IMG/VR virus record: IMGVR_UViG_3300031539_000392
Location: 1-20,449 of that record
From: a virus
Reading direction: 5' to 3' (one strand)
DNA length: 20,449 nt
Shown here: in pieces, positions 4,341 to 17,823 of the stretch
Layout: each line of letters opens with the position of its first letter
Position numbering within the stretch: position 1 is the stretch's first letter
Notes under the pieces: generated by a model
Database searches by the model: none
The model's input: only the letters and a program-made list of their open reading frames with translations
What the model was told of the DNA's origin: nothing
Position numbers and translations under genes: made by a program

Positions 4341-4500
4341 GATTTTCTCCTTTCTTTATGTGATTTTCAAAAAATACCTACCAACTTTTTCCTTCAACTG
4401 TAAAACCAGCATGGGGCAACCGTTTTCAAAGCACAATCCAGAGGGTAAATCCAATATCACGCCCGGCCAAGGCTGCCCATGCTGGGGTTATTTAGTTTTC
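4341..4500 (-). promoter_or_regulatory. Leader of the ParB-like gene with long inverted repeat
   Basis: The 160-base leader holds an imperfect inverted repeat: CCAGCATGGGGCA (4406-4418) against TGCCCATGCTGG (4474-4485), 12 pairs with one bulged G and a loop of about 55 bases. On the minus strand the second arm is followed by TTTTA. A TTTTCAAA motif recurs near 4365, 4423 and 4496. The strong AGGAG site and start codon lie downstream. This could be an operator for the ParB-like protein or an RNA fold, and nothing here decides between them. No clear -35/-10 pair was found. Confidence 0.5.
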
Positions 4501-4544
4501 AAAAATAAGGCGGAGCGGCCATAAGGACGAAAAGACCGCCCGCC
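4501..4544 (-). terminator. Intrinsic terminator after the recombination operon
   Basis: On the minus strand GGCGGGCGG (4536-4544) pairs with CCGCTCCGCC (4509-4518) with one extra base. The hairpin is followed directly by TTATTTTT. It lies 12 bases past the AP2 half-domain stop and would end the operon running from about 9361 before the ParB leader. Confidence 0.6.
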
Positions 4545-4555
4545 TATGGAGAAAA

Positions 4556-9606: not shown

Positions 9607-9680
9607 GTGCCCGGCGGGGATTTGAACCCGCGACCTCCAGGTTATGGGCCTGGCGAGCTGCCGAACTGCTCCACCCCGCG
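9607..9680 (-). tRNA. Initiator-like tRNA-Met (CAT), 3' side mispaired
   Basis: The 5' acceptor strand is CGCGGGG. The D arm (GAGC/GCTC, with the A11-U24 initiator feature) and the anticodon arm (CCAGG, loop CCCATAA, CCTGG) are well formed, and the T-loop is TTCAAAT. Initiator marks include C1 opposite A72. The 3' side reads CCCCG then CCGGGCA: two T-stem pairs and two acceptor pairs do not form. The stretch CCCCGC could pair with either the T-stem 5' strand or the acceptor 5' strand, as if one 3' strand had been lost. No CCA is encoded. Either a decayed tRNA or an unusual tRNA-like RNA. Confidence 0.7.
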
Positions 9681-9712: not shown

Positions 9713-9809
9713 CGAAAGGGGCAGGACTCGAACCTGCATCGGTCTGTTAAAATCAGACTGTTTTGCCTGCGGAGCGAGGCGCCTCCCTTCGCAGTTAAAC
9801 TACCCTTTC
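9713..9809 (-). tRNA. tRNA-Lys (TTT) with long D-loop insertion
   Basis: The acceptor GAAAGGG/CCCTTTC pairs perfectly. The anticodon arm is GTCTG, loop ATTTTAA, CAGAC, giving anticodon TTT (Lys). The T-arm is GCAGG, TTCGAGT, CCTGC, and the discriminator is G. No CCA is encoded. The D-stem GTTT/AAAC is present, but the D-loop is 33 bases instead of about 8-10, making the gene 97 bases. The extra bases form a palindrome (listed separately). Without the insert the D region would read as an ordinary GTTTAACTGGCAAAAC arm. Confidence 0.85.
9768..9793. repeat. 26-nt palindrome inserted in the tRNA-Lys D-loop
   Basis: The 26 bases fold on themselves with 11 of 13 possible pairs and no loop, centred on the perfect palindrome GAGGCGCCTC (9776-9785). 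The ends TGCG and CGCA pair. The segment separates the bases that would be G18 and G19. It is GC-rich compared with the tRNA around it. No second copy was noticed in this window. Confidence 0.8.
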
Positions 9810-10191: not shown

Positions 10192-11151
10192 TCATACGAC
10201 CTCCTTAAATTGGGTCTCTGTTTCTGGCAGAGACCCTTTTTTGAGCCTGTCCGATGCGATTTTTCGGGCCTGAGCAAAGAATGACTTCCTTACACCAGTG
10301 TAATAGGTCAGCGTCTTTCTGCATTTATGACCGGTCAGGGACATTACAATGTGGTCCGGCAACTGCTCGATCATGTTGGTCGTATACGTTTTTCTGAGCC
10401 GATGGAAATCGCCGATCTGACAGCCGAACGCCTTTCGCTGGATCCCGACAAACGTCCGGCGGAAATTTTCTTCCGGACATTTCCGCTTCCGGAAATTCAA
10501 TAATCCCGACCGCTGCATGTACAGCATGTGGGCGTATCTGCGATGATTCAAAAACGGATAGTGACATCCGAGCAATTTAATTATCCCATCGAGCTGCTCG
10601 ATTATCGGGACCTGCCGGACCTCCTTTGTCTTTGGCTCCCACGGCCAGGTCCGCTCGCTCTTTCGCTTGGCCTCGACGTGAACGTAGCCCTTGCGAATGT
10701 TGTCCATCGTCAGATTCAAAATCGCTCCACGGCGAAGCCCGGTTGTCCATGCACAGAGTATGATCCCCTTCCACCGGAGATCCGAAGCAAAACGCAGCAT
10801 CCTTTCGACCTGCCAGTCCTCGTAAAACGCAACAGGATTGCGGGTGATACGAAACTGCCTGGTCCGCTTTAACGGATTGACCGGCAAAATCTCTTTGTCC
10901 TCGACCGACCAGCTAAATATCCTGCTGATCGACCGAAGCCACATATTGGCGGAGTTCCTGGATCTTCCGGTTTCCATCAGATAACTCTTGAACTTCTCGC
11001 CGTCGGCCGGCTTGACCTTGTCGATACGCTTGTTGCCGATCGCCGCGACAAAGTGTTTAAAGGCAAGCACGAACGTATCGATCGACGACGGCTCGTAGTT
11101 CCAACGGTTCTCCTCTATAAATAGTTGACATAACGTGTGGCTCGTAATCAT
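10192..11151 (-). CDS. int: Tyrosine-recombinase integrase
   Basis: Catalyses site-specific integration and excision at the adjacent tRNA-Val attP. An N-terminal SAM-like core-binding domain (about 1-95) precedes the catalytic domain. Active-site residues are visible: Arg in TTGLRRG (R140), Lys in KTKEVRQV (about 174-176), His250 and Arg253 in FHRLRKT, His275 in LTGHK, and the nucleophile Tyr in LTYYTGV (283/284). A TTG start at 11187 is open, but ATG at 11151 has GGAGG eight bases upstream (with GTGGCCAA between), giving 319 residues. The start region lies between inverted TGTGGCTCG sites, suggesting self-regulation. It is last in its transcription unit, ending at attP. Confidence 0.93.
   Translation of the reverse strand: MITSHTLCQLFIEENRWNYEPSSIDTFVLAFKHFVAAIGNKRIDKVKPADGEKFKSYLMETGRSRNSANMWLRSISRIFSWSVEDKEILPVNPLKRTRQFRITRNPVAFYEDWQVERMLRFASDLRWKGIILCAWTTGLRRGAILNLTMDNIRKGYVHVEAKRKSERTWPWEPKTKEVRQVPIIEQLDGIIKLLGCHYPFLNHRRYAHMLYMQRSGLLNFRKRKCPEENFRRTFVGIQRKAFGCQIGDFHRLRKTYTTNMIEQLPDHIVMSLTGHKCRKTLTYYTGVRKSFFAQARKIASDRLKKGSLPETETQFKEVV
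11136..11144 (+). promoter_or_regulatory. Candidate integrase arm site 3, inside int start
   Basis: TGTGGCTCG on the plus strand, lying within codons 3-6 of int. It forms an inverted pair with site 4, 33 bases away. Confidence 0.6.
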
Positions 11152-11177
11152 TTGGCCACCTCCTTTCTTTCTAAGGG

Positions 11178-11186
11178 CGAGCCACA
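11178..11186 (-). promoter_or_regulatory. Candidate integrase arm site 4, upstream of int
   Basis: TGTGGCTCG on the minus strand. The longer form CTTAGAAATTTTGTGGCTCG (11178-11197) matches the plus-strand sequence at 10076-10096 with one base fewer, so int is bracketed by about 20-bp inverted repeats. Confidence 0.6.
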
Positions 11187-11206
11187 AAATTTCTAAGGTT
11201 CGCCCA

Positions 11207-14708: not shown

Positions 14709-14984
14709 CTAAAAGATAACATTCTCGATTAGGCTTCTTATTATCCCGCCACTTTTAATATTGTCGGCAACCACGGCCACGATCCTGTCTCCATATTCCG
14801 AGTTCGATTCATGCGTTACCATCGTTACGCAACCATGTATAGTTACACCGGAGACCGTGATTTCAATTGCGGATATCTCGATCTGTTGTGTTTCGTTCGC
14901 TTCATACAACTTGACTTCAATCGGTGAATCGGGGTTGGCATTTTCGAGTTTGGCCATCAATTCTTTTACGGTCATTTTTTTCAT
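14709..14984 (-). CDS. Small phage protein of the MTVKELxxKL type
   Basis: 91 residues beginning MKKMTVKELMAKLENANPDS, the opening of a widespread group of short phage proteins of unknown function. A mostly beta remainder (VKLYEANETQQIEISAIEIT) follows. AAGGG lies seven to eight bases before the ATG. It is 38 bases downstream of the preceding minus-strand gene and closes that operon. No catalytic motif is visible. Confidence 0.65.
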   Translation of the reverse strand: MKKMTVKELMAKLENANPDSPIEVKLYEANETQQIEISAIEITVSGVTIHGCVTMVTHESNSEYGDRIVAVVADNIKSGGIIRSLIENVIF

Positions 14985-15022: not shown

Positions 15023-15472
15023 CTAATGGTCAAGGATAATAATATCTTCATCTGTACCTAGCATGACAATTAATTCGTCATACGGGTCTTTTTTGTCGTG
15101 GTCGTCCATTGGGATTTGCCCAATATCGTATTGGTCTTTGATTTTCGGTTCAAGCATTTTTAGCTCAGTCAGCCACATTTTAATGCCTTCTTCATTTGTT
15201 CCCGTCTTGTCTCTCATAATCCAACCGTCCAGATTACTTACGCAAGCATTGGCGATTTTCAATTCAGGGAACCACCTAAAAAGCCAAGGTTTGCATTCCT
15301 CGGCAAATCTTCCCAATTGATGAGTATATACCGAATCCCCGGTCATGTGATTTAATAAAACATAAATACGACCAATGCCATTGTCACGTGGCCCTTCCCT
15401 TTCTGTGAGAAGCCGTCCAGTCGTCACCGACAACACTGTTCCAAGTGCAAATGTTTTGATATTTTCACTCAT
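15023..15472 (-). CDS. Phage protein with TTGRLL-MTGD domain
   Basis: 149 residues. The N-terminal 70 match a recurring phage family: LGTVLSVTTGRLLTEREGP (11-29), VLLNHMTGDSVYTHQLGRFA, ECKPWLFRWFPEL. I recall this as DUF7736, function unknown, but the number is from memory. The C-terminus (DPYDELIVMLG, then IIILD) resembles a short appended beta-alpha unit. AAAGGG stands seven bases before the ATG. The gene lies behind a near-consensus promoter and a leader with switching inverted repeats, so it is probably regulated by attenuation. Confidence 0.7.
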   Translation of the reverse strand: MSENIKTFALGTVLSVTTGRLLTEREGPRDNGIGRIYVLLNHMTGDSVYTHQLGRFAEECKPWLFRWFPELKIANACVSNLDGWIMRDKTGTNEEGIKMWLTELKMLEPKIKDQYDIGQIPMDDHDKKDPYDELIVMLGTDEDIIILDH

Positions 15473-15483
15473 TTTTCAACCCT

Positions 15484-15588
15484 TTAAAAAGATGAGCCCC
15501 GCCGCAAACTCGGAACCTTGGCAGGAAGAGAGAAGCGACATTGGGGCTCATAATGTATTTTGATTTGTTGTTTTGATTCGTTTGTCAT
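15484..15588 (-). CDS. 34-residue leader peptide candidate
   Basis: Within the leader, AAGGA about nine bases before an ATG at 15588 opens a 34-codon frame ending TAA at 15484. The peptide begins MTNESKQQIKIHYE and ends basic (LRRGSSF). Translating ribosomes would cover arm A and the second strand of arm B, so its translation could decide which hairpin forms. It may also be chance. Confidence 0.4.
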   Translation of the reverse strand: MTNESKQQIKIHYEPQCRFSLPAKVPSLRRGSSF

Positions 15589-15600
15589 TGCCAAGGTTCC
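15492..15600 (-). promoter_or_regulatory. Attenuator-like leader with interleaved inverted repeats
   Basis: GGAACCTTGGCA pairs with TGCCAAGGTTCC (15589-15600 with 15512-15523, 12 bp perfect). ATGAGCCCC pairs with GGGGCTCAT (15543-15551 with 15492-15500, 9 bp perfect). The arms alternate, so the stems exclude each other unless a pseudoknot forms. On the minus strand the last arm is followed by CTTTTTAAA, a terminator tail. On the plus strand the other end has TTTTT. The promoter at 15623-15651 starts just upstream and the coding start is 20 bases after the last arm. Confidence 0.65.
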
Positions 15601-15622
15601 TTTTTAACTTTCAGTATATTAT

Positions 15623-15651
15623 ATTATACGCATGGGAACATTAAATGTCCA
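15623..15651 (-). promoter_or_regulatory. Sigma-70-type promoter
   Basis: On the minus strand TGGACA (15646-15651), a 17-base spacer and TATAAT (15623-15628), within a run TATAATATAATATA. It should start RNA near 15615, giving a leader of about 140 bases that contains the attenuator-like element. Confidence 0.7.
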
Positions 15652-15659
15652 TAAAAAAT

Positions 15660-15830
15660 ATGAATTATTCATATATATTTATCTCTACTAACGCCGTGCA
15701 AAGGCTGAGCCAATCGCCAGAATCAAATCCTACGCACTCAGCCGCCTTGTGGCTGGCCGATCTCGGTTTGAAGGTAGGTTGGGAGCGGACAGCGCCTCAA
15801 ACTGCCCGCCCCACCGGACAGAAAGGAATC
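15660..15830. other. Non-coding stretch with GGCTGAG/CTCAGCC repeat
   Basis: No convincing gene. GGCTGAG (about 15702-15708) and CTCAGCC (about 15736-15742) form a 7-bp inverted repeat. Frames open on both strands have unlikely composition and overlap the XRE gene. It separates the XRE gene end from the promoter. Confidence 0.4.
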
Positions 15831-16034
15831 TTAAGGCTTGGCCGAAAAAGTAATCGTCGCCCCGAGCTGATTGAGCAGGTCCTGCAGGTAGTTGGCGCCG
15901 AGTGCCTTGCGCCCGGCGAAGAAATCGTATAGCGTACCCGGATGACATTCCAGCTTACGCGCCATGACCGGGATGCTTATCTTTCGTCTTTTCATCTCTT
16001 TTTGAATCTGTTTGCGTAAATTTGTATTTGCCAT
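15831..16034 (-). CDS. XRE/Cro-like helix-turn-helix protein
   Basis: 67 residues with a helix-turn-helix: KISIPVMARKLECHPGTLYD (18-37) and FFAGRKALGANYLQDLLNQL. Such proteins bind operators as Cro or CI-type repressors or act as antitoxins. The start overlaps the stop of the upstream gene (TAATG), so the two are coupled. The toxin-first order of HigBA systems is the same, but the upstream protein does not look like HigB. Either a regulator of the accessory operon or the antitoxin of an undescribed pair. Confidence 0.72.
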   Translation of the reverse strand: MANTNLRKQIQKEMKRRKISIPVMARKLECHPGTLYDFFAGRKALGANYLQDLLNQLGATITFSAKP

Positions 16035-16911: not shown

Positions 16912-17823
16912 TTAGTATTTAATGCCTGCGTAATCCAACGGAACCGATAAGCCCATCTTTTCAATACAGTATTCGTGCAATTTCGGGTGCATTTTTTTCA
17001 TCAGTTCGAATCGGTTCGGAGAGCCTTCGAGGTGTGCTCCGAACATGCAGAACATGCAGCCGGTATTTTTAACGCCCGTATCGTAGATCGGGCAGTAATC
17101 AATTCCATTGCCTTTTGTGTATTCCCATATATCGGCGGTTTTCCAGAACGCCAGGGGTGTGCATTTCGGCAGGGACTTGTTCATAACGAAGCACCCGTTT
17201 TTGAGATACATCGCCGCCCGCTTATTGGAATCGTCCGCCATTGTCCCGACGATACCCACCCGCCCGGTCTGCCTGTGGTATTTCTGGACAGGCCTCATCT
17301 TCATTACATCGCAGCATTTGTCCGAAATCTTGAAAGGGGCATCAAGGAGAAATCGCCACTTGATGGGTAGTTTGCCATAACTACCCCTTTCATCACCGTA
17401 CATCGCCTTATTCTTTGTCCTCTGACTACAGCCGGTGCTGCGGATCCGCCGGACAGCATCGGCTACCGATTTACTTATCAGGGGAAACCCGTAATGCTCA
17501 ATCGTCTGCTTGAAGCTCTGGGTCGGCTTGAGCCAGATGACATTCTCCACAGACTTGACGAAACTCCTGATCTCCGGGTACTCCAGACCGGTATCGACAA
17601 AAACCGCCGGCACTTCTTTATAGAGCGATCTGACAAGGTGAAGCAGTACCGTACTGTCCTTGCCCCCGCTGAAGGCCACGTAAACATTTCCCTGCCATTG
17701 ATCGTACCAGTGTTTTATTCTCGAAAGTGAAAGGTTAACTTTACATTCGAGAGGAAGTGATTGTCTTTGTGCCAGTTGGTAAGCCTGCACTTTTAGTTTT
17801 TCGTTTACCGTATAAGATACCAT
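16912..17823 (-). CDS. PAPS/APS reductase-family protein with Fe-S cysteines
   Basis: 303 residues. The ATP-pyrophosphatase loop FSGGKDST is at 51-58. Cys170-Cys171 and a CxxC at 256-259 are spaced like the CC-x80-CxxC motif that holds the [4Fe-4S] cluster in assimilatory APS reductases. The C-terminal ECGLH that supplies the catalytic cysteine is absent; the protein ends shortly after the FCMFGAHLEGSPNR segment. Phage members of this family are common and of uncertain role; sulfur transfer to DNA or RNA, as in DndC-type enzymes, is one idea. GGAAG precedes the ATG at 17823. The upstream terminator at 17871-17912 isolates it from the tail operon. Confidence 0.85.
   Translation of the reverse strand: MVSYTVNEKLKVQAYQLAQRQSLPLECKVNLSLSRIKHWYDQWQGNVYVAFSGGKDSTVLLHLVRSLYKEVPAVFVDTGLEYPEIRSFVKSVENVIWLKPTQSFKQTIEHYGFPLISKSVADAVRRIRSTGCSQRTKNKAMYGDERGSYGKLPIKWRFLLDAPFKISDKCCDVMKMRPVQKYHRQTGRVGIVGTMADDSNKRAAMYLKNGCFVMNKSLPKCTPLAFWKTADIWEYTKGNGIDYCPIYDTGVKNTGCMFCMFGAHLEGSPNRFELMKKMHPKLHEYCIEKMGLSVPLDYAGIKY

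What the first reader, a model, noticed from the sequence alone, without database searches (positions are those of the whole stretch)
15484..15651. Promoter, leader peptide and mutually exclusive hairpins before a phage gene of unknown function
A TGGACA-17-TATAAT promoter is followed by a 12-bp and a 9-bp perfect inverted repeat whose arms alternate, the second ending in CTTTTTAAA. A 34-codon frame with a ribosome site runs across the arms. This is the architecture of transcription attenuation or a riboswitch, or of a pseudoknot, but I match it to no known class. Attenuators in phage accessory operons are little described.
Basis: partly seen in the sequence, partly recalled or inferred. Interest (0 to 1): 0.65.

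Follow-up and report, generated by a model that had tools for sequence, protein, structure and literature searches.

The report
Phage leader RNA with crossing hairpins
In front of an accessory gene of an uncultured phage lies a short leader whose RNA can form two interlocked hairpins over a tiny reading frame, and a related phage has the same layout with entirely different letters, which suggests a real on/off switch that is not in the RNA family library searched.

Summary
On the minus strand a near-consensus promoter is followed by perfect inverted repeats in the order A-B-A'-B' (12 and 9 bp). A 34-codon frame spans them, and the DUF7736 gene follows. No shuffle of the region gave such a crossing pair (0 of 100,000). 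The reading needs one correction: the arms share no base, so the two stems are not mutually exclusive by sharing. They have the topology of an H-type pseudoknot. B:B' alone scores poorly as a terminator. The promoter, but not the leader, recurs in one relative (L007). Six other DUF7736 genes lack the leader. A related phage (L076 4412-4574), downstream of a 46%-identical HTH gene, has the same plan with unrelated arm sequences: stems 11 and 9, loops 36/15/13 against 37/19/11, a 41-codon frame over the arms, a U-rich tract, then the next gene's start. Both leaders show the same predicted folding order, A:A' first and B:B' later. No Rfam or literature match was found. Best explanation: a cis-acting leader in which A:A' closes the leader's own ribosome site and B:B' restrains the downstream gene, while translation of the leader opens both. 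That the architecture is real and recurs is well supported; the mechanism is inferred.

The parts
15831..16034 (-). HTH (Cro/C1-type, weak match) gene upstream of the leader; its homologue also lies upstream of the second leader, in L076
   Evidence: Weak Pfam HTH matches; 46% identity to the L076 HTH and 51% to the L013 HTH
15604..15688 (-). promoter block conserved in relative L007, ending just before arm A
   Evidence: 86% identity, E=1.4e-22
15653..15679 (.). A+T-rich palindrome (TATGAATAATTCATA core) upstream of the -35 box; possible operator or UP-like element
   Evidence: inverted repeat I2; kept in L007; found once in the window
15623..15651 (-). sigma-70-type promoter TGGACA-17-TATAAT; start of transcription expected near 15616 (inferred)
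15598..15602 (-). ribosome site AAGGA of the leader frame, its last three bases inside arm A
   Evidence: sequence
15589..15600 (-). arm A, GGAACCTTGGCA, ends at the base before the leader ATG
15484..15588 (-). leader frame, 34 codons, spans B, A', B'; stop overlaps the ribosome site of the next gene
   Evidence: no family match
15543..15551 (-). arm B, ATGAGCCCC
15535..15539 (-). GUCGC, 5' side of an optional inner helix (pairs with 15505-15501)
15512..15523 (-). arm A', TGCCAAGGTTCC, pairs with A
15501..15505 (-). GCGGC, 3' side of the optional inner helix
15492..15500 (-). arm B', GGGGCTCAT, pairs with B
15486..15490 (-). U5 tract after B' (within CUUUUUAAA)
   Evidence: sequence; poor terminator score
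15480..15485 (-). ribosome site AAAGGG of the DUF7736 gene
   Evidence: sequence
15023..15472 (-). controlled gene: DUF7736 protein (PF24875), 149 aa, function unknown
   Evidence: Pfam E=5e-19; mostly helical model, no PDB fold match
14709..14984 (-). 91-aa gene probably in the same operon
   Evidence: 38-nt gap after DUF7736; phrog_6161 E=2e-4

Best explanation
It is a cis-acting 5' leader of a phage accessory operon. Shown: the promoter, the A-B-A'-B' arms, the small frame across them, and the same plan with other letters in a related phage. Inferred: as RNA polymerase leaves the promoter, A pairs with A' as soon as A' is made. This blocks the ribosome site or start of the leader frame. B' then appears and pairs with B, either replacing the A:A' state or locking it as a pseudoknot. 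In that closed state the downstream gene is held back, by termination or pausing at the U-rich tract and by loss of ribosomes arriving from the leader frame. If a ribosome loads on the leader early enough, A:A' cannot form. The ribosome then runs through B, A' and B' to a stop codon on the doorstep of the next gene, keeps the stem open, and hands over to the next start. The leader thus acts as a self-closing, translation-opened gate. What tips the balance (phage or host factor, growth state, a trans RNA) is unknown.
For: Crossing arms far beyond chance. Second instance in a related phage: L076 A 4442-4452/A' 4513-4523 (11 bp), B 4489-4497/B' 4537-4545 (9 bp), loops 36/15/13 against 37/19/11, 41-codon frame with AGGA ribosome site, stop 5 nt before the next gene's ATG, TTTATTTTTAA after B'. 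0 of 3,915 shuffled gene starts have a weaker helix as strong as these two, and they rank first and second of 261 real gene starts. In both, arm A covers the leader's initiation region and the frame ends next to the next gene's ribosome site. Same predicted folding path: A:A' first (-21.0 and -22.8 kcal/mol when A' completes), B:B' dominant once B' is made (-33.3 final in both). A homologous HTH gene lies upstream in both. Ribosome-opened terminators under a leader frame (PMC3894217) and a prophage leader frame that is translationally silent through its own 3' end (PMC4825925) are precedents.
Against: Only two members. The arms cannot be aligned, so pair-by-pair covariation across homologous columns was not measured. 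B:B' is a weak terminator by score (-29 here, -5 in L076). L007 has the same promoter without the leader, and L013 has the HTH without an evident leader. Neither leader peptide has a relative, so its translation is unproven. The pseudoknot energy is a rough estimate (-30 to -38 against -33 nested). No expression data.
Confidence: 0.42

Rival explanations
1. Purely translational control by a pseudoknot. The leader RNA folds as an H-type pseudoknot that a phage or host protein recognises, and binding blocks the leader and downstream ribosome sites, as T4 gp32 does on its own mRNA. No termination is involved.
For: H-type order with feasible loops 37/19/11 and 36/15/13. Weak terminator scores. A/U-rich single-stranded stretch with the ribosome site follows the fold, as in T4 gene 32 (PMC535899).
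Against: The downstream ribosome site lies outside the stems. The downstream proteins in the two phages are unrelated (DUF7736 and a 132-aa orphan), so autogenous binding by the product is unlikely; the shared candidate would be the HTH protein.
Confidence: 0.24
2. Transcription attenuation proper: B:B' plus the U tract terminates transcription and A:A' is the antiterminator state, chosen by ribosome position or a ligand.
For: U-rich tract directly after B' in both members. Other genes of this phage group also have G+C-rich hairpins plus U runs just before their ribosome site (L070 15506, L071 9925, L073 16463). Predicted nested energies of the A:A' and B:B' states are within 5 kcal/mol.
Against: The arms share no strand, so A:A' does not compete with B:B' by sequence. 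Large loops, poor terminator scores. No run of one kind of codon in the leader frame that would sense an amino acid.
Confidence: 0.2
3. A small non-coding RNA (promoter, structured RNA, terminator) acting in trans, with the frame incidental, like the short IsrK RNA of Gifsy-1.
For: A compact unit of about 125 nt; a precedent with a dual sRNA/mRNA role (PMC4825925).
Against: In both members the frame has a ribosome site and spans the whole fold up to the next gene. No second copy of the arms (within 2 mismatches) beyond chance in the window.
Confidence: 0.08
4. DNA-level sites: arms A and A' are operators for the nearby HTH protein, giving a loop, and the RNA fold is a by-product.
For: HTH gene next door; arms 77 bp apart; GCCAAGGTT also at 15283.
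Against: The A motif is not enriched (18 found, 17.9 expected). In L076 a 46%-identical HTH lies beside arms of quite different sequence. It does not explain B:B' or the small frame.
Confidence: 0.04
5. Chance: two unrelated coincidences.
For: Only two cases; no alignable homologue; real genomes hold more repeats than shuffles do.
Against: 0 of 100,000 and 0 of 3,915 shuffles. No other gene start with such a pair in about 250 kb of further phage DNA, overlaps included. Matching loop sizes, frame, U tract and HTH neighbour.
Confidence: 0.06

Closest known systems
Streptococcus gallolyticus pil1 leader (PMC3894217)
   Same: Small leader frame whose ribosome opens a hairpin next to the downstream gene when its stop lies within or past the hairpin
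   Different: No A:A' stem closing the leader's own start, no crossing stems; pil1 varies by repeat number
Gifsy-1 isrK-orf45-anrP leader (PMC4825925)
   Same: Prophage promoter, structured leader, short frame (45 aa) whose 3' part pairs upstream; downstream translation depends on the short frame
   Different: Controlled in trans by a short RNA; arms and genes unrelated; the alternative structures there are nested and share strands
T4 gene 32 translational operator (PMC535899)
   Same: 5' pseudoknot followed by an unstructured A/U-rich ribosome site in a phage mRNA
   Different: T4 pseudoknot is about 28 nt with no leader frame across it; gp32 recognises it and represses its own gene
IncI/IncB/IncL/M repZ/repA pseudoknot with leader peptide (titles cited in PMC10724649; mechanism recalled)
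   Same: Leader peptide translation combined with a pseudoknot before the controlled gene
   Different: There the pseudoknot activates and an antisense RNA controls; short loop-loop contact, not 12+9 bp stems
SAM-II riboswitch (H-type pseudoknot; PMC9373788)
   Same: H-type pseudoknot near a ribosome site, sometimes with a terminator downstream
   Different: Conserved ligand-binding sequence core; none here, no Rfam match

Membership tests
Ribosome-mediated transcription attenuator (trp/pil1 kind) | promoter, leader frame with ribosome site, hairpin before the gene | tested here: met
   same in L076
Ribosome-mediated transcription attenuator (trp/pil1 kind) | alternative stems that share a strand | tested here: not met
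   arms A, B, A', B' do not overlap
Ribosome-mediated transcription attenuator (trp/pil1 kind) | credible intrinsic terminator | tested here: inconclusive
   U5 tract present, but score -29; L076 -5
Ribosome-mediated transcription attenuator (trp/pil1 kind) | termination in the leader that depends on leader translation | not testable with these tools
   needs term-seq and mutants
H-type pseudoknot leader | two stems in crossing order with loops able to span them | tested here: met
   37/19/11 and 36/15/13 nt loops for 12/9 and 11/9 bp stems
H-type pseudoknot leader | both stems formed at once | not testable with these tools
   rough energies do not decide
Rfam riboswitches and cis-regulatory families | match to a covariance model | tested here: not met
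   no relevant match at gathering or relaxed thresholds
A leader specific to DUF7736 genes | leader present before other DUF7736 genes | tested here: not met
   absent in L002, L003, L028, L030, L031, L032
Conserved structured RNA (covariation) | stems kept while sequence changes | tested here: inconclusive
   plan kept with unrelated arms in one relative; two members only, arms not alignable

The most novel reading that the evidence does not exclude
A new class of phage leader RNA: a self-closing pseudoknot gate in which one stem shuts the leader frame's own ribosome site and the other holds the downstream gene, kept by architecture and not by sequence, beside a conserved HTH gene and placed before exchangeable accessory genes.
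Probability: 0.3. Interest if true: 0.72.

Novelty: new variant of a known kind. Interest (0 to 1): 0.5.

Why it matters
Phage accessory genes must be kept quiet or timed without harming the host. A leader with fixed geometry and free sequence would be a portable switch that sequence searches and Rfam-style models miss, because nothing in the letters is conserved. It would show how such leaders can be found (by crossing arms, small frame and gene start), and it makes a direct test possible with two natural versions.

Tried and rejected
Exact arm patterns in viral contigs: none, or 18 unrelated coding matches. Promoter patterns in viral and genome collections: only L007 and chance A+T-rich sites. 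Leader DNA or peptide in phage and plasmid records: chance only. Rfam: no relevant match. Leader as a regular partner of DUF7736: rejected on six relatives. DUF7736 function by fold: AlphaFold model pLDDT 80, no PDB match; the named strong viral matches are other DUF7736 proteins. ArgR box at the palindrome: rejected, the half-sites are 1 nt apart and not 4 (consensus recalled). Frameshift fusion of leader and DUF7736: rejected, a stop lies two codons before the DUF7736 ATG in its frame and no slippery site was seen. DNA operator motif: not enriched. Host: not identified; the tail protein was absent from 297 and 295 genomes of two phyla reached through the few genome handles at hand. Weaker look-alikes (L071 9925, L073 16463, L070 15506) have hairpins but no strong A:A' and are not counted as members. 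High-G+C background hits of the detector were treated as chance.

Full report
What is there. The window is a 20,449-base virus record. On its minus strand, between an HTH gene (16034-15831) and a DUF7736 gene (15472-15023; PF24875, E=5e-19), lies a promoter TGGACA-17-TATAAT (15651-15623). It is followed by two perfect inverted repeats in the order A-B-A'-B': A 15600-15589 with A' 15523-15512 (12 bp) and B 15551-15543 with B' 15500-15492 (9 bp). A frame of 34 codons (15588-15484) with AAGGA upstream starts directly after A, runs through B, A' and B', and stops in CUUUUUAAAGGG, whose AAAGGG is the ribosome site of the DUF7736 gene.

More than chance. No crossing 12/9 pair appeared in 100,000 dinucleotide-preserving shuffles of 15484-15620 or in 300 shuffles of the whole window. 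A lone 12-bp repeat appeared in 50 of 100,000 region shuffles. In 375 kb of other phage loci one comparable place was seen, in L035.

The four arms share no base. In trp-like attenuators the rival stems share a strand; here they do not, so the order is that of an H-type pseudoknot with loops 37/19/11. RNAfold, which cannot draw pseudoknots, prefers B:B' (-33.3 kcal/mol) to A:A' (-28.5). On a growing transcript A:A' is the best fold until B' is complete, after which B:B' takes over. A rough sum puts the pseudoknot at -30 to -38, so energies do not decide. B:B' plus U5 has a d'Aubenton-Carafa-type score of -29, with formula and weights applied from memory. It is not a convincing terminator by itself.

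Promoter conserved, leader not. In relative L007 (tail protein 74% identical) the block 15688-15604 recurs at 86% identity, E=1.4e-22, including the palindrome TATGAATAATTCATA, most of the spacer and AAAGTTAA after the start. Similarity ends just before arm A. L007 continues with another small frame, which begins METLIF and is 43 codons by my count, and with no crossing arms. Six other DUF7736 genes, from 69% to 39% identity, have no such leader. So the leader is not tied to DUF7736.

A second member. Scanning 185 kb of the tail-related phages, window included, for crossing arms gave one place besides the window: L076 4442-4545, in the record of L017 (tail 78% identical). There A is TGAGAAGTCGG/CCGACTTCTCA (11 bp), B is CCCGCCCTC/GAGGGCGGG (9 bp), and the loops are 36/15/13. 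A 41-codon frame with AGGA starts at 4441 and spans the arms. TTTATTTTTAAGAAAGG follows B'. The frame ends 5 nt before the ATG of a 132-aa gene. Upstream lies an HTH gene 46% identical to the window's. A TTGATT-17-TAAGAT promoter can be read before it, by eye. The two leaders rank first and second of 261 gene starts, and 0 of 3,915 shuffled gene starts reach their weaker-helix strength. Folding is parallel: A:A' at -22.8 when A' is complete, then B:B' at -33.3. Some 250 kb of further phage DNA (overlaps included) gave no other case before a gene. The arms cannot be aligned, so this is conservation of plan, not measured covariation. The L013 contig has the HTH gene (51%) without an evident leader.

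How it most likely works. In both phages A covers the initiation region of the small frame (ribosome site and spacer here, start codon and first codons in L076). B' stands directly before the U-rich tract and the next ribosome site, and the small frame ends at the next gene's door. The simplest reading is a gate that closes itself co-transcriptionally through A:A' and is opened by a ribosome that loads early and then holds B:B' open and hands over to the next gene. Shown: the sequence, statistics, recurrence and predicted order of folding. Inferred: translation of the frame, the closed state, termination or translational block, and the signal. Precedents for single steps are the pil1 leader, where the ribosome opens a terminator (PMC3894217), the isrK-orf45-anrP prophage leader (PMC4825925) and the T4 gene 32 pseudoknot (PMC535899). 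None of these has this combination. Rfam has no relevant match, and the searches of open papers gave no phage case of this kind.

The controlled gene. DUF7736 is unnamed in function. No paper in the open library mentions it. A seven-sequence AlphaFold model (pLDDT 80) is mostly helical and matches no solved fold; the strongest viral matches include other DUF7736 proteins.

Verdict. It is a new variant of known leader control. Two members and no experiment keep the mechanism at moderate confidence.

Noticed in passing
window about 9435-9361 (-) and L071 8787 (-): A hairpin conserved in two phages before a 3D-domain protein gene, TCTTTTATCTC...GAGATARAAGA, pairs the gene's own ribosome site.
   Followed up: partly
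L070 15506 (-): Strong ribosome site with a two-codon frame (ATGGACTAA), then a 13-bp hairpin (with G-U pairs) and U8 before the next gene: looks like an attenuator.
   Followed up: no
L071 9925 (-), L073 16463 (+), window 17823 (-): G+C-rich hairpin plus U-rich tract directly before the ribosome site of other accessory genes in the same phage group.
   Followed up: no
L007 9390-9680 (+): About 290 nt of highly structured non-coding sequence (-95.9 kcal/mol) ending in a tRNA-like T arm, behind the conserved promoter; no Rfam match.
   Followed up: partly
L007 9923-9999 (+): tRNA-like gene that ARAGORN gives a four-base anticodon, taga.
   Followed up: no
window 9713-9809 (-) and 9613-9674 (-): Two tRNA matches by Rfam, the first with an insertion in the D-loop region, close to the integrase gene 10192-11187; ARAGORN calls none.
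   Followed up: partly
window 16912-17823 (-): PAPS-reductase-like gene in the tail-side accessory region; also matches BrxP, SspD and DndC defence models.
   Followed up: no
window 15283-15304 (-): Terminator-like hairpin GCCGAGG...CCTTGGC TTTTT inside the DUF7736 gene repeats nine bases of arm A; the codons are conserved in protein (KPW), so probably chance.
   Followed up: partly
L035 3584-3785: Three chained crossing inverted repeats of 9-14 bp in an unrelated phage contig.
   Followed up: no
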